Positions 17,402-24,761 of a stretch of DNA of 64,000 nucleotides are shown here, in pieces. The position numbers were made by a program, and so were the translations under genes. Source of the stretch: Candidatus Gastranaerophilales bacterium (lineage in GTDB: Bacteria > Cyanobacteriota > Vampirovibrionia > Gastranaerophilales > Gastranaerophilaceae); the NCBI GenBank assembly GCA_944324445.1, contig CALUWL010000001.1, positions 33,561 to 97,560 of the forward strand. The letters are read 5' to 3'. Numbering within the stretch: position 1 is the stretch's first letter; the number at the start of each line of letters is the position of its first letter. The notes under the pieces were generated by a model that worked only from the letters and a program-made list of their open reading frames with translations, had not been told where the DNA came from and ran no database searches.

Positions 17402-20400
17402 ATGTATATAAAAGAAATAGAAATAGACAACTTTAAATCTTTTGCAAATAAAGTTACTGTGCCGTTGCTTGAAGGTTTTACAGCTATATCCGGTCCGAAC
17501 GGATCAGGAAAGAGCAACATTATAGATAGCGTATTGTTTGCGCTGGGCTTGACTACCGCCCGCACGCTGCGCTCCGAACAAGGTGTTGCTGATTTAATTA
17601 CAAACCACAACAAAAGAGGAGAAGCATCGGTTAAAGTAACTTTCGGAGATGAAAACGGAAACAGTGCAAATGAATTTTCCGTAAAAAGATATATAAAAAA
17701 AGGTAAAAACGGGGTTCAATCAAACTATTATTATAATGATAAACCCTGCACATTAACTCAAATTCACCTTGAGCTTGAAAAATATAACATTTCTCCAAAC
17801 AGCTACAACGTAATGATGCAAGGTGATGTAACAGAAATCACCAAATGTTCTCCAATGGAGAGAAGAAAAATAATAGATGAAATTGCAGGAACTGCTGATT
17901 TTGATAGAAAAATCACGCTTGCAGGCGAACAAATCCAAAGCGTTGAAGATAGAGTCGCAAACACAAACATCTTAATGGGTGAAATAGATAACAGAATTGA
18001 ACAATTAAAAGAAGAAAGAGAAGTTGCCCTAAAATATAAAAAATATAAAGACGAAAAAACTTCTCTTGAAAATCAAATACAAAGTGCAAAATATTTTGAT
18101 ACTGTTCGCTCTCTGGAGCTTGTTCATCAAAATATTCTTGCGGCTACAAAAGAAAAAAAAGAATTAAATCAAAAACTAAAAGAAGCAGAATCAAGAATTG
18201 AAGATACAAAAATAAAATACGATAAAATAAACGCAAAAGTTAAAGCACAAGGCGAAGAAAAACAACTCGAAGTCAAAAAAACAGCTGAAGAAAAAAAAGG
18301 TGAAATCGAAAGAAAAAAATCTGCAATTGCACAAGTTGAAAAAACCACTCTCGATAATTTAAAATCAATAGAAAGCTATAAAAACGGCATAGAAGTTCAA
18401 AAACAAAAAATTGAAGAATTTAAAAAAGCAATTGAAGAAAAAAATCTTGAACTTAAAAAATTAAATAAAGCACTGGAAGATAAAAAAGCCGAGCTAAATA
18501 AAATAATTAGCGAAATGACAGGCTTAAATAAATCTGCAGATGAACATATTCAAAACAGAAACAAATTAAGAAAAGAATTAGAAGATTTAAAAGACCAAGA
18601 AACACAATTAATAAAAGAGCAGCTTCCTTTAGAAAATGAATATAAAAATAACGAAGATAAAATCAAATCCACAAAAGAAACAATGGATAAGCTTTTAAAT
18701 GCTGCAAAAGTTTTTGAAAATGAAAAAGATAAATTAAATCTTCAAATAGAAACTCTTGAAAACGAAGTTAAGGATTTTAAACTTCTTCAAACCAAAACAT
18801 TTGAAGAATTAGATAAAACCAAAACCCAAAAGGAAGATAATTTTTATCAAATTCAACAAGCACAAAAAAGAATTGCAATACTGGATGCTAACAAAAACGC
18901 TTATAAATCAGTCGGTATGGGTTCAGGCATTGAAACCGTCATGAGAGCGCATATTGAAGGAGTACATGAACCGTTAGCACAACTGGCAGAAGTTGAAAGC
19001 GAATATATAGACGCTATTAATGTTGCAATGGGAGCAAGAGCCTTTTCTATTGTTGTAGATGACCAAGATACAGCCTATAAAGCTATACAAATATTACGCT
19101 CACAAGGAAGAGATAGGGCTTCTTTTATTCCACTTAGCATAATAAAAAAAGCTCCTGTAAAAATGGCGCTGCCCAAAGAAAAAGGGGTTATAGATTTTGC
19201 AATTAATTTGATTGATTTTGATGATAAATATATAGATGCATTTTATTTTGCATTAGGTGAAACCGTTGTAGTTGAAAACGAAACAACGGCAAAAAAACTT
19301 GCAGGAAAATATAGAGTCGTTACTCTAGAAGGCGATATAACAGAAAAAAGCGGTCTTATAACAGGCGGCGCAAGAAAGAAAAATGCATCATTCTTTGACA
19401 AAAGTCAAGAAAAAGAACTTGAAAAATACAAAAAAGCTCTTAAAAATCTTGAAGAGTCCACAAGAGATTTAGCTCAAAAAGAAAAAGATTTAGAGCGAAG
19501 ATTGGATGACATCAGACAAAAACATTCAAATGCTTTAAATAGCTTAAATTCAGCAAGAATTGAACTTAAAAATTTAATTTCAAATAATGAACAATCAGCT
19601 GATATTATCCAAAAAGGAAAAGATGATCTTAAGAGCCTTAAAGAAAGAAATACAAAACTTTCTAAGGAATTAGATTTATTTGAAAATCGCCACATTAAAT
19701 TAAATGATAAAATCCAAAAAACCCAAGAAGACCTTGAAGAAGTCGAAAAACTTATTGATGAGGGCGAATTAAAGAAATTAAAAGAAAAAACAAACGGAAT
19801 TGAAGAAGAAATTAAAACAATCGAAAAATCAATAATGACGGTTGAAAACGACATAGAAAAGGACGAAAATCAAATTAAATTCCAACAAAGTCAAATTTCT
19901 ACCCGTCAAACAGATATTGAAAAACTAACAAAAGATAATAAAAATTTAAAAACCGAACGTGAACAATTCATGCTCGAAATTGAAAATGTCAAAAAAGAAC
20001 TGGAAGCGCTTGAAAAAGAAATCGAAGAACTGGGCAAAAACCTTGTAGAATTGCAAAGTCAAAGAGATGAATTACAAGAAGCTCTTTTAGGGGCTAAAAC
20101 CGACAAAAATAAAATCCAAGACAATATAGAAAGATTGCTCGAGCAGGAAGAAAGCTACAAAGCAAGAAGGCGCGAACTTGAACCTATGCTTGAAAATATC
20201 TTAAAAGAATTTGAAGCAGCAGGAATTAACCCAAAAGAACTCGAGCAAACCGAAGTTCCTCTTGAAGAAATTACCTCTAAAATATCCAAACTACAAAAGA
20301 AAATGGAAGAATTGGAACCTGTTAATATGCGCGCTCTAACAGAATACGATGAAGTTATGGAGCGTCAAAATTCATATAAAGAAAAGGTTTTAACTCTTGA

Positions 20401-20908
20401 AAATGAAAAAAATGAAATAAAAACACGCATGAGCGGATATCAAAATCTTAAAAAAGAAACCTTCCTAGAAGCATATCATGCTATAAATAAAAATTTCAAA
20501 GAAGTATTTGCGCAATTATCGGAAGGCGAAGGAACGCTTGTTTTGGAAAACGAAAACGATCCTTTCTCCGGCGGGCTTACCTTTGAAGCAAATATAAGAG
20601 ATAAGAAAAACCAAAAACTTGCAGGCATGTCAGGCGGAGAAAAATCCCTGACTGCTCTTGCATTTGTTTTTGCAATTCAAAAATATCTGCCCTCGCCATT
20701 TTACGCATTCGATGAAGTCGATATGCACTTGGATGGTCCGAATGTTGAAAGATTGGCAACAATTATTACAAAACAATCAAAAACAGCTCAATTTGTAGTT
20801 GTTTCGCTTAGAAAACCAATGCTTGATAATGCAGACAGAATGATAGGCGTTACACAAAAAGATAAAGGGGTAACAAAAATCTCCGGAATTAAGTTGAAAG
20901 ATGAATAA
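17402..20908 (+). CDS. smc: Chromosome partition/condensation ATPase SMC
   Basis: A 1168-residue SMC, the expected length, which forms the bacterial condensin with ScpA and ScpB. N-terminal Walker A is GPNGSGKS at 31-38 in the canonical opening MYIKEIEIDNFKSFANK. Two long coiled-coil arms flank a hinge around residues 500-660 with GMGSGIE near its start. The C-terminal head has signature MSGGEKS from M1076 and Walker B FYAFDEVDMHLD. It begins the block smc-scpA-scpB and ends in TAATG, overlapping scpA by one base. No Shine-Dalgarno is obvious close to the ATG; the nearest purine run is about 20 bases upstream. Confidence 0.97.
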   Translation: MYIKEIEIDNFKSFANKVTVPLLEGFTAISGPNGSGKSNIIDSVLFALGLTTARTLRSEQGVADLITNHNKRGEASVKVTFGDENGNSANEFSVKRYIKKGKNGVQSNYYYNDKPCTLTQIHLELEKYNISPNSYNVMMQGDVTEITKCSPMERRKIIDEIAGTADFDRKITLAGEQIQSVEDRVANTNILMGEIDNRIEQLKEEREVALKYKKYKDEKTSLENQIQSAKYFDTVRSLELVHQNILAATKEKKELNQKLKEAESRIEDTKIKYDKINAKVKAQGEEKQLEVKKTAEEKKGEIERKKSAIAQVEKTTLDNLKSIESYKNGIEVQKQKIEEFKKAIEEKNLELKKLNKALEDKKAELNKIISEMTGLNKSADEHIQNRNKLRKELEDLKDQETQLIKEQLPLENEYKNNEDKIKSTKETMDKLLNAAKVFENEKDKLNLQIETLENEVKDFKLLQTKTFEELDKTKTQKEDNFYQIQQAQKRIAILDANKNAYKSVGMGSGIETVMRAHIEGVHEPLAQLAEVESEYIDAINVAMGARAFSIVVDDQDTAYKAIQILRSQGRDRASFIPLSIIKKAPVKMALPKEKGVIDFAINLIDFDDKYIDAFYFALGETVVVENETTAKKLAGKYRVVTLEGDITEKSGLITGGARKKNASFFDKSQEKELEKYKKALKNLEESTRDLAQKEKDLERRLDDIRQKHSNALNSLNSARIELKNLISNNEQSADIIQKGKDDLKSLKERNTKLSKELDLFENRHIKLNDKIQKTQEDLEEVEKLIDEGELKKLKEKTNGIEEEIKTIEKSIMTVENDIEKDENQIKFQQSQISTRQTDIEKLTKDNKNLKTEREQFMLEIENVKKELEALEKEIEELGKNLVELQSQRDELQEALLGAKTDKNKIQDNIERLLEQEESYKARRRELEPMLENILKEFEAAGINPKELEQTEVPLEEITSKISKLQKKMEELEPVNMRALTEYDEVMERQNSYKEKVLTLENEKNEIKTRMSGYQNLKKETFLEAYHAINKNFKEVFAQLSEGEGTLVLENENDPFSGGLTFEANIRDKKNQKLAGMSGGEKSLTALAFVFAIQKYLPSPFYAFDEVDMHLDGPNVERLATIITKQSKTAQFVVVSLRKPMLDNADRMIGVTQKDKGVTKISGIKLKDE

Positions 20909-21777
20909 TGACAGAAGCAGTTAGTGAATTTTATTCAAACAATAAGTTAAAATATGATGAAATCAAGGTTCTTGATGGAACAGTAGACTTTGGAAGTAAT
21001 ACCGAATTTATTTCACGTTCAGGTATTAAAAAAGATGTTCAAACAGATGCCATCGAAATCATACTTGACCTTGTAAAAGAAGGAAAACTTGATCCTTGGA
21101 ATATTGATATTGTTGATTTATACGATAAATATATGGCAAGAATATCTCAATTAAAACAAGATAACTTGCGCTCTGTCGGAAAAGCAATTCTTTTTTCTTC
21201 CACTCTTTTAAAAATAAAATCCGACATTCTGCAAGGGATTTCGATTAACGATTTTGATCCTGAACCTTTGGATTATTTTGAAGACGATAACTTTGAAGCA
21301 GACTATGAGCAGATGCAAATTCCGACAAATAATGTTGTATCATTTGACGAAGTCCTTCAAAGACGTACATCTGTCCGCTTAAACAGAAAAAGAAACGTAA
21401 CCTTAAAAGATTTAATCAGACATATTCAATTTTACGAAGATTTAGAAAAAAAATATGCAATCAAAAACGCACTTGATAGAAAAGAACGCCGAGTAAGAAA
21501 CTACTCAACTCTTAAAGCAGCGGAAATAAAAGAGCTTGCACATGATGAATATGTTGAAGAAGTTGTTGAAAAAATGAGGCAAAATTTATGCCAAATTTTA
21601 TCAAGGGAAGAAAATATAGAACTTAGAGAATTATGTCTTCTTGGTTTCGACAGAAGCTCCGCTTTTATTGCGCTTTTATTTTTAGCTCGTGAAGAAGAAT
21701 ATGAAATCAAGCAAAAAGAATTTTACGGCAAGTTATATGTCCAAAAAGCAGACAAAAATGAGGTTGAAATAGAATAA
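20908..21777 (+). CDS. scpA: Segregation and condensation protein A
   Basis: A 289-residue kleisin that bridges the SMC heads. The N-terminal region has the family pattern DAIEIILDLVKEGKLDPWNI (canonical LDLLLxLI..KLDI), and the C-terminal winged-helix region (about 210-280) has LCLLGFDRSSAFIALLFLA before the final strands. An acidic linker, with E/D-rich segments around 112-130, joins them. It has one-base TAATG overlaps with smc before it and scpB after it, so the three condensin subunits are translationally coupled in the order SMC-ScpA-ScpB. Confidence 0.93.
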   Translation: MTEAVSEFYSNNKLKYDEIKVLDGTVDFGSNTEFISRSGIKKDVQTDAIEIILDLVKEGKLDPWNIDIVDLYDKYMARISQLKQDNLRSVGKAILFSSTLLKIKSDILQGISINDFDPEPLDYFEDDNFEADYEQMQIPTNNVVSFDEVLQRRTSVRLNRKRNVTLKDLIRHIQFYEDLEKKYAIKNALDRKERRVRNYSTLKAAEIKELAHDEYVEEVVEKMRQNLCQILSREENIELRELCLLGFDRSSAFIALLFLAREEEYEIKQKEFYGKLYVQKADKNEVEIE

Positions 21778-22289
21778 TGGAAATGGAAACCCTAAAAGCA
21801 AAAGTTGAAGCTGTTTTATTTATAACTTCAAAAGCAATGCAGCCTAATGAAATAGCTGAAATACTTCAATTTGATGAAGAAAAAGTAACCGAAGCGCTAT
21901 TGGATTTAATGTTCGATTATTCATCAAGAAACGGCGCGCTTGAAATTGATGATGAAGATGGCTACATTATTCAAGTTAAAGCAGAACACATGGATATAGT
22001 TGAAAAGCTTTGCCCGGTTGAGCTAAAACCGTCTGTACTAAAAACTTTAACTGTAATTGCTCTTAAAGAACCCATAAGACAAACCACTTTAAAAGAGCTG
22101 CGCTCAAACGCTTATGAGCATATTGCGGAATTATTGGAACAAGGATTAATTTCAAAAACAAAAGACAAAAACGGAAGAAGTTTTAATATTAGGACAACAA
22201 AAAAATTTCAGGAGTATTTTAAATTAAAAGGGGATATAAAAGCTTTAGTTAAAAAGCTTGATGCAGCAGAAGACCTTAAAAATTTATGA
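21777..22289 (+). CDS. scpB: Segregation and condensation protein B
   Basis: A 170-residue ScpB with two winged-helix domains that dimerises and binds the kleisin ScpA. The N-terminal domain begins LKAKVEAVLFITSKAMQPNE, and the second carries LKTLTVIALKEPIRQTTLKE and the beta-wing LISKTKDKNGRS. The length is slightly below that of B. subtilis ScpB (about 197). The start overlaps the scpA stop by one base, and the end overlaps the start of the following ribonucleotide reductase homologue by four bases (ATGA). Confidence 0.93.
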   Translation: MEMETLKAKVEAVLFITSKAMQPNEIAEILQFDEEKVTEALLDLMFDYSSRNGALEIDDEDGYIIQVKAEHMDIVEKLCPVELKPSVLKTLTVIALKEPIRQTTLKELRSNAYEHIAELLEQGLISKTKDKNGRSFNIRTTKKFQEYFKLKGDIKALVKKLDAAEDLKNL

Positions 22290-23632
22290 AAATAGAAAAA
22301 ATCACTCCAAAAATTTTTAAACAAAATAAATTCAACAAAAAAAATACTGATATAACTTTTTTAAAGTCCGATAAATTGCTATCCGAAGGGCTTTATATAA
22401 ATTTTTATTCGGAAGCATTTAAAAAAGATATAAATTTTTTGCCTTTAATTGAGCGCAATATAGCTAACAAAAACGAAAATAGCGAAGCTTTTTTTAATAG
22501 AATAGCATCGTATTTTTTCAATAAACCTGAAGATAAAACGATTTTTTTAAATTATCTAAAAAACGGTTATATTTCTTTTTCAACATCGGCTTATAAAGGT
22601 ATTACAACATCTAAAAAACCTTTTAGTGCAATAGGAATAGAACTTGATTGCAATAAAACAATTGTAGAGCACCTTGCAAATCTTGAAAAAATTATAAAAA
22701 ATGAGCAGGGCGTAGGGATTAATTTTTCAAAATTTGAAAACCCAACTGATACAATAAAACAAATTAATTCATATTTTTTATTTCGACAAAAAGAAAACGA
22801 TTTAAAAAGACCTCCTGCAGGAATTGCCCTTTTAAATATTGATAATCCTGAAATTCTTGAATTTATAAAATTAAAAGATGAAGAAAATTACAGCACTTGG
22901 TGCTTTGATTTATCTGTTATATTACCCGATGATTTTATTCAAAAGGTTGATAACAATGAAACAATTACTTTAACAAACGGCAAAAAAGTTGCAGCAAAAG
23001 AAATTTATAATACACTTTTAAATTCAATGCTAAAAAAAGGAGAGCCGGGGGTTATTTTTTCAAATGATAAAAATTATATCTGCGATTCTTGCGCTGCAGC
23101 ACCATTAAAGCCAAACGAGGGTTTGACATTGGCGCACATTAACCTTGCAAAATTTTATGATAAAAACAAAAATTCAATTGATACGGATAAATTAAATAAT
23201 GCTGCCAGATACTTATCTATTGCGCTTTCTAAATTGGATAATAACGGTTATATCGGTGTATTAGGTTATCAAGAACTTTTAGATAAAATGAATTTGCAAT
23301 ACGGTAAAAATGAGGCTAATAAAATATTAGACCTTATGTTAAAAATAATAAAAGAGCAAACTTCAAAATTCAATCTTAAAATGTCAATTGCCCCCACAGG
23401 GACAATCTCAAGAATTTTAAAAACCACGCCTGCTATCGAACCTAATAAAAATAGACCTATAAGTTACGATGATGAACTTAATACTATGAAAACAGCTCAA
23501 AAATATCTTGAAGGAAATATCTCAAAAACAATTCAATTAAATAAAGATGCAACTCCTAAAGATATTGACTATATTTTAAGAAAAGCTCAAGAATATAAAT
23601 TAAGAGGTTTAACTGTTTTTAAAGCTCAATAA
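22286..23632 (+). CDS. Degenerate class II ribonucleotide reductase homologue
   Basis: A 448-residue protein clearly related to adenosylcobalamin-dependent (class II, NrdJ-type) ribonucleotide reductase: GVGINFSKF, PEILEFIKLKDEEN, INLAKF and the C-terminal APTGTIS...TTPAIEPN block are recognisable. The loop around the thiyl cysteine aligns without gaps to the family pattern NPCGEQPLPPYGACNLGSIN. There, Cys269 is kept, but the catalytic Asn becomes Asp267, the catalytic Glu becomes Ala271, and the redox cysteine becomes Leu280. The partner redox cysteine in SACFVLP is Ile116. No ATP cone and no C-terminal CxxC tail are present, so it is much shorter than working enzymes. It probably does not reduce ribonucleotides by the known mechanism; a regulatory or nucleotide-binding role is inference. 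It is coupled to scpB by an ATGA overlap and overlaps the opposite gene by 14 bases at the 3' end. Confidence 0.8.
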   Translation: MKIEKITPKIFKQNKFNKKNTDITFLKSDKLLSEGLYINFYSEAFKKDINFLPLIERNIANKNENSEAFFNRIASYFFNKPEDKTIFLNYLKNGYISFSTSAYKGITTSKKPFSAIGIELDCNKTIVEHLANLEKIIKNEQGVGINFSKFENPTDTIKQINSYFLFRQKENDLKRPPAGIALLNIDNPEILEFIKLKDEENYSTWCFDLSVILPDDFIQKVDNNETITLTNGKKVAAKEIYNTLLNSMLKKGEPGVIFSNDKNYICDSCAAAPLKPNEGLTLAHINLAKFYDKNKNSIDTDKLNNAARYLSIALSKLDNNGYIGVLGYQELLDKMNLQYGKNEANKILDLMLKIIKEQTSKFNLKMSIAPTGTISRILKTTPAIEPNKNRPISYDDELNTMKTAQKYLEGNISKTIQLNKDATPKDIDYILRKAQEYKLRGLTVFKAQ

Positions 23633-24761
23633 AATCTTTCATATCTAATTTTAAAAGATTTTTTATTTCATCAATTGCAATTGTTTTTGCAAAAACAATT
23701 GCAAAAACAGGATTTTTCTTAGCATCAATTTTTCTTATTTCAAGAGGATTTTTAATATTATTTAGATATTTTTCAAAATCAATTCCCTTGATTTTAATCT
23801 TATCAATCTCAGACGGGATATCTGCCATGGTGAAATAAAAATAAGAATTATCAACATTAGATAAAATCTTATCCCAATCGGGCTTTAATTTTTTAAAATA
23901 ATATTCATAAACATTAATCCCCCAAGCAAAATAAGCAATATCCGTTATACACCAGCCGCAAAACCTTAAAGGATTAATTTCAATTGGAATTATTTGTTCA
24001 TTATTTGCCCTTAATTCAAGATGAAAAGGAAAATTCTTAAATCCGAGGCAAGCCCCAATTTTATCCAAAACCGCAGTAAACTTATCAAGATATTTTTGAA
24101 TAATTTCTTTGGATGTGAAATAAACTCTATCTGATACATCATTTTCATCAAAAAACGGATGCTTAAATATATTCAATATTGTTGCTTTACCATTTTCATC
24201 AAAATAAGCATCAAGCGCGTATTCATCGCCCTCAATCATTTCTTCAATTATAAATTCACTGAAATTAACAACGCTTTTAGGAAAAATTCCTTCAACTTTT
24301 TTTATTTCGTCTTTTACTAATTGAACAACTTTTTGCCATTCGTTTATATTTTTAACAGGATAAACCCCAAAACTCAAAAACCCGACCGAAGGTTTTAAAA
24401 TAAGAGGATATTTAAGATTTGAAGGATTAATTGAATCAATTTCTTCTAGTGATATTTTTCTAAAATAAAAATCAGGATAAATTTCTTTTAAATATTCTCT
24501 GAATAATACTTTATTTTTACTTATTTTTATATACTTTGAAACATCAAATGAAGGAAATTTTTCTAAAATCCAATCAGTTGAATTTTCCGAATTTGAATAA
24601 AACAATTCGTTATTTGACATCTTTAGCGCTTCATTTTCACTTAACAAAAATTTTTTATCCAAAAATTCAATTGAAACATTATTTTCCAGAACCGAAAAAT
24701 TATTTTTCTGAATTGTTTCAACTAAAAAATCCGATACATAAGGTTTTTCTAATATAATCAT
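23619..24761 (-). CDS. ATP-grasp domain protein of unknown substrate
   Basis: A 380-residue ATP-grasp-fold protein. The family joins a carboxylate to an amine, thiol or similar group via an acylphosphate. Visible elements: the ATP-binding beta-strand lysine in YPLILKPSVGFLSFGVYPV, the hinge region FIIEEMIEGDEYALDAYF, and the metal-binding end HLELR...IPIEINPLRFCGWC with Glu and Asn ligands. The N-terminal 110 residues form the pre-ATP-grasp domain. The substrate cannot be assigned; amino-acid or peptide ligases and carnosine-synthase-like enzymes share this layout. Its ribosome site AGGA (24770-24773) lies inside the 3' arm of a 15-bp hairpin. It lies downstream of the HD-GYP gene on the same strand, and its 3' end runs 14 bases into the ribonucleotide reductase homologue. 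Confidence 0.75.
   Translation of the reverse strand: MIILEKPYVSDFLVETIQKNNFSVLENNVSIEFLDKKFLLSENEALKMSNNELFYSNSENSTDWILEKFPSFDVSKYIKISKNKVLFREYLKEIYPDFYFRKISLEEIDSINPSNLKYPLILKPSVGFLSFGVYPVKNINEWQKVVQLVKDEIKKVEGIFPKSVVNFSEFIIEEMIEGDEYALDAYFDENGKATILNIFKHPFFDENDVSDRVYFTSKEIIQKYLDKFTAVLDKIGACLGFKNFPFHLELRANNEQIIPIEINPLRFCGWCITDIAYFAWGINVYEYYFKKLKPDWDKILSNVDNSYFYFTMADIPSEIDKIKIKGIDFEKYLNNIKNPLEIRKIDAKKNPVFAIVFAKTIAIDEIKNLLKLDMKDFIEL

What the first reader, a model, noticed from the sequence alone, without database searches (positions are those of the whole stretch)
22286..23632. Class II ribonucleotide reductase paralogue with its radical-chemistry residues replaced
The fold is recognisable, and the loop around the thiyl cysteine aligns gap-free to the NrdJ pattern. 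Cys269 is kept, but the catalytic Asn is Asp267, the catalytic Glu is Ala271, and both redox cysteines are gone (Leu280, Ile116). The ATP cone and the C-terminal CxxC tail are absent. A retained cysteine with lost partners suggests a repurposed nucleotide or cobalamin-binding protein, not simple decay, since the frame is intact.
Basis: partly seen in the sequence, partly recalled or inferred. Interest (0 to 1): 0.78.

Follow-up and report, generated by a model that had tools for sequence, protein, structure and literature searches.

The report
Radical-dead reductase barrel beside SMC genes
In one genus of gut bacteria, a gene lying directly behind the chromosome-condensing SMC genes encodes a protein predicted to have the shape of the enzyme that makes DNA building blocks, yet it has lost the residues that enzyme needs while staying under purifying selection, so it likely senses or handles nucleotides instead of making them.

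Summary
ORF 22286-23632 (448 aa) is an intact ribonucleotide-reductase (RNR) barrel with Asn->Asp267, Glu->Ala271, no redox cysteines and no C-terminal cysteine tail; only the fingertip Cys269 remains. It is not decay: D267 and C269 are invariant in 109 of 109 short sequences, and dN/dS is 0.10-0.22 in the 14 closest pairs. The gene is in 26 of 28 genomes of its genus, each time directly behind scpB (smc-scpA-scpB-X). Its genome has no other PF02867 match; the reductase is class III NrdD/NrdG. All 28 genomes lack matches to both cobalamin adenosyltransferase families searched, so a B12 role is unlikely. It is not a decayed copy of the order's own NrdJ: it nests among RNR-like proteins without the catalytic Asn ('AxCAE' instead of NxCxE) that share a shortened segment and nearly all lack the tail; 17 of them carry NUDIX domains. 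That group mostly keeps the Glu and the redox pair; the window family lost these too and fixed an Asp-x-Cys finger loop. Most likely function, inferred: a B12-free nucleotide-binding pseudo-reductase co-expressed with condensin. A new thiol chemistry is not excluded.

The parts
22286..23632 (+). RNR-like barrel gene (448 aa), no catalytic Asn/Glu, no redox Cys, no Cys tail
22286..22289 (+). ATGA overlap of the scpB stop with the start of this gene; the first in-frame ATG lies -4 to +6 nt from the scpB stop in 26 of 26 genomes
   Evidence: 25 genomes; G008, which the script misread
22286..22399 (+). codons 1-38: predicted disordered N-terminal tail, variable between species
   Evidence: (pLDDT < 50 for 1-38)
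22628..22633 (+). codons 115-116: site of the first redox Cys (T. maritima C134 by recall), here Ala-Ile; no Cys in either column in 109 short sequences
22808..22819 (+). codons 175-178 RPPA, loop-2 position (mostly RRGA in canonical NrdJ); preceded by the short segment shared with the Asn-less group
22898..22903 (+). codons 205-206 Trp-Cys, family signature (W 109/109, C 108/109; canonical NrdJ has Asn at 206 in 21 of 21)
23081..23098 (+). codons 266-271 C-D-S-C-A-A, the finger loop (NPCGE in canonical NrdJ); D267 and C269 109/109
23123..23125 (+). codon 280 Leu at the second redox Cys position (T. maritima C333)
23393..23410 (+). codons 370-375 PTGTIS, distal phosphate loop, kept
23522..23530 (+). 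codons 413-415 Ser-Lys-Thr, motif kept from canonical RNR
17402..20908 (+). smc, first gene of the linked cluster
   Evidence: name recalled from the sequence
20908..21777 (+). scpA
   Evidence: name recalled
21777..22289 (+). scpB, immediately upstream in 26 of 26 genomes that carry the gene
   Evidence: name recalled
23681..23710 (+). terminator-like hairpin after the gene (weak: 5 such sites in the region, 4.3 expected)

Best explanation
This intact gene, the last of an smc-scpA-scpB-X cluster that is probably one operon, encodes a protein predicted to fold as a ribonucleotide-reductase barrel; it lacks the catalytic Asn, the Glu and both redox cysteines, so it is very likely not a reductase, and it would likely bind a nucleotide through its kept phosphate loop and act as a B12-free sensor or modulator made together with condensin. 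Shown: gene position, residue losses, invariance of the new Asp-x-Cys finger loop, dN/dS well under 1, no match for canonical NrdJ or for two cobalamin adenosyltransferase families in the genus, and intact NrdD and NrdG genes. Predicted: the fold. Inferred: one transcript, loss of reductase activity, nucleotide binding, and a link to chromosome handling. Origin (from tree and shared shortened segment): a wider group of RNR-like proteins without the catalytic Asn, not the order's own NrdJ. Rough confidence by step: not a reductase 0.95; maintained function 0.95; no adenosylcobalamin 0.85; nucleotide ligand 0.5; role tied to SMC-ScpAB 0.3.
For: Residue losses and 109/109 invariance of D267 and C269. 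Short form in 26 of 28 genus genomes, with no canonical-length PF02867 match in any of the 28. Directly behind scpB in 26 of 26, start -4 to +6 nt from the scpB stop. The 3' neighbour differs in 8 of 26 (one of these ends at a contig edge), so the scpB link outlasts rearrangement. dN/dS 0.10-0.22 in the 14 closest of 325 pairs. PF02572 in 0 of 28 genus genomes against 28 of 30 others; PF01923 in 0 of 58. Own NrdD and NrdG pass their NCBIfam cut-offs. Confident barrel model with RNR as best structural match. Tree and shared shortened segment with the Asn-less group. NUDIX labels on 17 relatives point to nucleotide-type substrates.
Against: I have no ligand, partner or expression data. The apical phosphate loop (PNSP) is replaced, so the nucleotide site is at least altered. 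Two genomes of the genus do without the gene (G015, G027), so it is not essential for SMC function. It evolves much faster than its cluster mates (median identity 0.52 against 0.85 for scpB), unlike a core condensin subunit. The position behind scpB may only provide a promoter. Model coordinates are not returned, so I could not inspect the pocket. The NUDIX labels are on relatives that still hold Glu and the redox pair, so the hint may not carry over.
Confidence: 0.4

Rival explanations
1. New-chemistry enzyme: the Asp267-x-Cys269 finger loop, with Cys206 and Cys266, would be a re-made active site (thiol nucleophile or metal site) acting on a nucleotide without radicals or B12.
For: D267 and C269 109/109, C206 108/109, C266 99/109; D267 and C206 replace residues that are invariant or nearly so in canonical NrdJ (Asn at 267 in 20 of 21, Asn at 206 in 21 of 21). 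Invariant or nearly invariant polar residues S99, S114, N146, N161, R175, K197, N286, S413.
Against: C266 is Thr or Phe in 10 of 109 and C206 is Arg in 1, so no strict four-ligand metal site. No geometry could be measured. No known activity to match.
Confidence: 0.27
2. Protein-binding scaffold: the barrel has lost ligand chemistry altogether and likely serves as an adaptor, for SMC-ScpAB or for NrdD, with the motifs kept for folding.
For: Inactive betaherpesvirus R1 homologues work through protein contacts (PMC5469499, passages). Position in the cluster. Predicted disordered variable tail.
Against: Most invariant residues fall in motifs of the former active site; this is judged from sequence alone, not from the model.
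Confidence: 0.2
3. A working but unusual ribonucleotide reductase.
For: Fingertip Cys kept; barrel fold predicted.
Against: Asn, Glu, both redox Cys and tail are missing in the window protein, and no Asn, Glu or redox Cys stands at these columns in any of 109 short sequences; no match to two adenosyltransferase families; NrdD and NrdG present. Class I small subunits were not searched for.
Confidence: 0.03
4. A decaying pseudogene of the genus's former NrdJ.
For: Fast evolution; absent in 2 of 28.
Against: Open frame through the match in 26 of 26 (the one stop counted, in G010, is the terminal one), dN/dS 0.10-0.22, invariant motifs, and the tree plus the shortened segment place it outside the order's own NrdJ.
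Confidence: 0.02

Closest known systems
Class II ribonucleotide reductase NrdJ (T. maritima, PDB 1xje/3o0o)
   Different: NPCGE is replaced by DSCAA; no redox Cys pair; no tail; PNSP loop replaced; a 41-residue segment cut to 29 here; two further segments roughly 50 residues shorter than in most relatives; NCBIfam cut-off failed.
Asn-less NrdJ-like group found here ('AxCAE' proteins P0122-P0259, some with NUDIX); my searches found no published name
   Same: No catalytic Asn, shortened segment before loop 2 (25-33 residues in the window family, 27-31 in nearly all the rest), no C-terminal Cys pair (absent in 97 of 100, 20 of 21 and 5 of 5); many share RPPAG and Trp205.
   Different: They nearly all keep the Glu (99 of 100) and the redox Cys pair (96 of 99 and 99 of 100) and most are 520-860 aa; the window family is mostly 400-460 aa and lost both.
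Inactive betaherpesvirus R1 homologues (HCMV UL45, MCMV M45)
   Same: RNR large-subunit homologues with most catalytic residues gone, kept for another role (PMC5469499, passages).
   Different: Viral proteins acting on host signalling; no bacterial gene-cluster link. Common ancestry beyond the shared fold was not tested.
Class I/Id RNR alpha subunit (6dqx, 6dqw)
   Same: Highest structural Z, 36.4 over 381 residues, perhaps because these chains are short.
   Different: Active reductases (recalled); the sequence scores higher against class II models.

Membership tests
Ribonucleotide reductase barrel superfamily (PF02867) | Pfam gathering score and barrel fold | tested here: met
   83 bits against 23.9; pLDDT 90.1 model, RNR top matches
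Class II RNR NrdJ | NXCXE finger-loop motif shared by class O, I and II (PMC9669993, section 9 read) | tested here: not met
   D-S-C-A-A here; no Asn at 267 and no Glu at 271 in 109 of 109
Class II RNR NrdJ | Redox Cys pair on strands A and F (PMC9669993, section 9) | tested here: not met
   No Cys at columns 115, 116 or 280 in 109 sequences
Class II RNR NrdJ | C-terminal Cys pair or Cys-rich domain (PMC5704485, passages) | tested here: not met
   Protein ends in LTVFKAQ; no pair in 21 of 21 window-family rows, present in 33 of 35 canonical rows
Class II RNR NrdJ | NCBIfam equivalog score TIGR02504 | tested here: not met
   128.6 against 399.95 bits; two canonical NrdJ of relatives score 740.4 and 733.2
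Class II RNR NrdJ | Binds adenosylcobalamin | not testable with these tools
   Indirect: PF02572 in 0 of 28 and PF01923 in 0 of 28 genus genomes
Asn-less NrdJ-like group (defined here) | No Asn at the 267 position, shortened segment, no tail | tested here: met
   nested in tree, S+I 98/87, next to P0122-P0124 96/89
Asn-less NrdJ-like group (defined here) | Keeps Glu and redox Cys pair | tested here: not met
   Lost in all 109 short sequences
SMC-ScpAB condensin component | Encoded in the smc-scpA-scpB cluster | tested here: met
   26 of 26 behind scpB
SMC-ScpAB condensin component | Physical association with SMC, ScpA or ScpB | not testable with these tools
   No interaction data

The most novel reading that the evidence does not exclude
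The RNR fold holds an unrecognised branch that abandoned ribonucleotide reduction. Its 'AxCAE' members, some fused to NUDIX hydrolases, would use the thiyl Cys and Glu for another reaction on nucleotides. In one Gastranaerophilales genus that also gave up adenosyl-B12, the branch was remade into a non-radical Asp-x-Cys nucleotide sensor or enzyme wired into the condensin operon.
Probability: 0.25. Interest if true: 0.82.

Novelty: new variant of a known kind. Interest (0 to 1): 0.62.

Why it matters
RNR is treated as a family with one reaction; the NxCxE loop is described as shared by classes O, I and II (PMC9669993, section 9). A bacterial lineage that keeps the barrel under selection, without the reduction machinery and next to the condensin genes, would be a cellular case of RNR repurposing, known to me mainly from herpesviruses. 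It also makes a question testable: what the Asn-less, partly NUDIX-linked RNR-like proteins do.

Tried and rejected
Decay: rejected on frame, dN/dS and invariance. Vertical relic of the genus's NrdJ: rejected by tree and shortened segment; caveats: the window family has a long stem (1.24 changes per column), one AxCAE protein (P0145) falls on the canonical side of the 99/98 split, and the root is a midpoint.

Phage origin: viral-contig scans with the two relative alignments gave one locus each (L146, L147); both encode ordinary NPCGE reductases. The phage collection gave distant reductases for the window protein (20 of 736 records listed, 19-24% identity). The viral fold library ranks ordinary phage and virus reductases first. 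Whole-genome scans of the order (383 genomes) and phylum (386 genomes) for the Asn-less group were not selective, because canonical NrdJ also pass the threshold; only G255 scored far above the rest (841 bits, next 346), and nothing stood out (best 422.5 bits, reductase-length frames). G131 had come up in the family scan; a weak match in G208 there (6e-11) was not examined.

N-terminal motif idea: a loose [IVLP][STNA]F[KTMRQGN][AGSN] scan gave 20 of 581 ORFs, no convincing tag. Structure of relative P0122 folded without an alignment failed (pLDDT 36.6) and was not used. Promoter and terminator scan gave no excess (26 against 27.4, 5 against 4.3).

Literature: searches with RNR plus Gastranaerophilales (0 papers), Melainabacteria (1), pseudoenzyme (3), NrdJ plus catalytically inactive (1), a six-term search on missing catalytic residues (1), NUDIX plus adenosylcobalamin (3), and RNRdb/class II/paralog (10 of 123 listed) listed no title on this family; I read only the listings of these. 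Only the held open library was searched.

Full report
What is there. ORF 22286-23632 encodes 448 residues and overlaps the scpB stop by four bases. Pfam's RNR barrel model matches clearly (E 2.5e-23), while the NrdJ equivalog matches far under its cut-off (128.6 of 399.95 bits). PMC9669993 (section 9 read) states that class O, I and II RNRs share NXCXE around the catalytic Cys and that class I and II use a Cys pair on strands A and F. The window protein fails both.

It is a maintained family. A protein search gave 205 hits, 120 listed; P0002-P0109 are short relatives and P0110-P0121 canonical reductases. With the window's own, the 109 short sequences are 251-473 aa, the shortest probably fragments. 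In them D267, C269, K197, W205, F193, I194, F207, S210, Y241 and S259 are 109/109, C206 108/109, C266 99/109, R175, N286, P370 and S413 108/108. Glu never occurs at 271, Cys never at 115, 116 or 280. Against 21 canonical sequences, the window family has Asp and Cys where these have Asn at 267 (20 of 21) and Asn at 206 (21 of 21). dN/dS (NG86) in the 14 closest of 325 pairs is 0.10-0.22, with dS 0.41-1.24; scpB in the same pairs is at most about 0.04. Median identity is 0.52 for this gene, 0.85 scpB, 0.81 scpA, 0.80 smc: constrained but fast.

Distribution and context. Of 58 genomes searched (the window's included), 28 are of the window's genus; 26 carry the short gene, G015 and G027 do not. 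None of the 28 shows a canonical-length PF02867 match, and the window's genome has only this one. Of the 30 others, 27 have canonical NrdJ, one of them (G048) in two pieces. A family-wide scan of 239 genomes gave 13 short-form matches, all in the genus, and two intermediates, G255 and G131; the part of its match list not shown lies below E 7.6e-22. A pattern scan of 84,980 species found 24 short-form loci, titled Gastranaerophilales, 'uncultured bacterium' or Cyanobacteria (some from goat and roe deer gut), and 3 distant ones; such a scan misses remote forms. In 26 of 26 the gene follows scpB, with first ATG -4 to +6 nt from the scpB stop. Of 26, 18 have the ATP-grasp gene next on the 3' side and 8 do not, one of these at a contig end. 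Fifteen scpB loci without the gene (G015, G027 and 13 from other genera) show no relative of it in the stretch fetched; in G015 the ATP-grasp gene follows scpB directly.

Metabolic setting. NRDD (PF13597) is found in 27 of the 28 genus genomes (not in G006). The window genome's NrdD scores 572.5 against 326.35 and its NrdG 189.7 against 126.1, with ATP-cone and glycine-radical domains in NrdD. The adenosyltransferase CobA/BtuR (PF02572) is in 0 of 28 genus genomes and 28 of 30 others; PF01923 is in 0 of 58. The two other genomes without PF02572 (G030, G047) also lack NrdJ; G050 lacks NrdJ but has PF02572. So the adenosyltransferase and canonical NrdJ mostly go together, and the genus has neither. 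Class I small subunits were not searched for.

Where it comes from. The intermediate from G255 (562 aa, STCAE) and a search with it gave a set of mostly 530-860 aa proteins with A or S in place of the catalytic Asn. Per group: 20 canonical have N, E and both redox Cys in 20 of 20; 21 'I' proteins have A or S (17, 4), Glu 20 of 21 (one Asp), second redox Cys 17 of 21; 5 'A' proteins have A or S (4, 1), Glu 5, redox Cys 5 and 5. The segment before loop 2 is 41 residues in 20 of 20 canonical, 27 in 19 of 21 I (two shorter or missing), 27-29 in A and 25-33 in the 21 window-family rows. A profile search returned 154 proteins, 120 listed; of 116 new ones, 15 have Asn and all 15 have the 41-residue segment, 100 lack Asn (89 A, 9 S, 2 V) and all have 27-31, and 1 is a fragment. 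Of the 100, 99 keep Glu, 96 of 99 the first and 99 of 100 the second redox Cys, and 97 have no C-terminal Cys pair; of 35 canonical rows 33 have the pair. Seventeen carry a precomputed NUDIX label; I rescanned three and found NUDIX at the N-terminus in two and the C-terminus in one. A 60-row tree (7 of the 67 aligned rows left out) puts the window family, 100/100, next to P0122-P0124 (96/89), within S+I (98/87), split from all canonical sequences in it, the order's own included (99/98). Limits: long stem, midpoint root, one AxCAE protein on the other side. The shared shortened segment is independent support.

What the losses mean. PMC8365446 (passages) describes an apical phosphate loop, PNSP in diphosphate reductases, and a distal loop. 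In the 21 window-family rows aligned, PNSP is replaced by [FL]S[ST][SNA], while the distal PTGTxS loop is largely kept. So a phosphate-bearing ligand is plausible but not bound as in a normal reductase. Reductase chemistry is very unlikely on present knowledge.

Verdict. The best reading is a pseudo-reductase under selection, probably nucleotide-binding and B12-free, co-expressed with SMC-ScpAB; a new thiol chemistry at Asp-x-Cys is the main rival. The wider Asn-less group is the more general find.

Noticed in passing
P0142-P0259 (proteins): About 100 RNR-like proteins with AxCAE-type loops instead of NxCxE and a segment shortened by 10-14 residues; 17 carry a NUDIX label, N-terminal in two and C-terminal in one of three rescanned. 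Many are unnamed or labelled reductase alpha chain or NUDIX protein.
   Followed up: partly
P0127, P0128, P0131-P0140: Asn-less RNR-like proteins of 811-860 aa with about 280 extra residues before the barrel; no Pfam domain found in that part of P0138.
   Followed up: no
G000-G027; G030; G047: Lack of CobA/BtuR goes with lack of canonical NrdJ in this order.
   Followed up: partly
G255: C59 (L124 2375-4063) and C63: One genome of another genus holds both an Asn-less RNR-like gene and a canonical-length RNR match.
   Followed up: partly
L082 8731-9762, L089 5832-6458, L093 1275-2942: Several Gastranaerophilales proteins start with a short stretch holding a motif like ISFQG, PTFTS or PAFKG; some Asn-less RNR-like proteins have IAFKAN or ISFMAN there. 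A loose scan (20 of 581 ORFs) was not conclusive.
   Followed up: partly
genomes G028-G056 against G000-G027: Two NrdD lineages in the order: one matching PF13597 at about 1e-115 (the genus and a few others) and one at about 1e-200; some genomes have both (e.g. G030, G047).
   Followed up: no
window 23681-23710: 12-pair hairpin with a T-rich tail after the gene, inside the convergent ATP-grasp gene; could end the smc cluster transcript, but such sites are not in excess.
   Followed up: no
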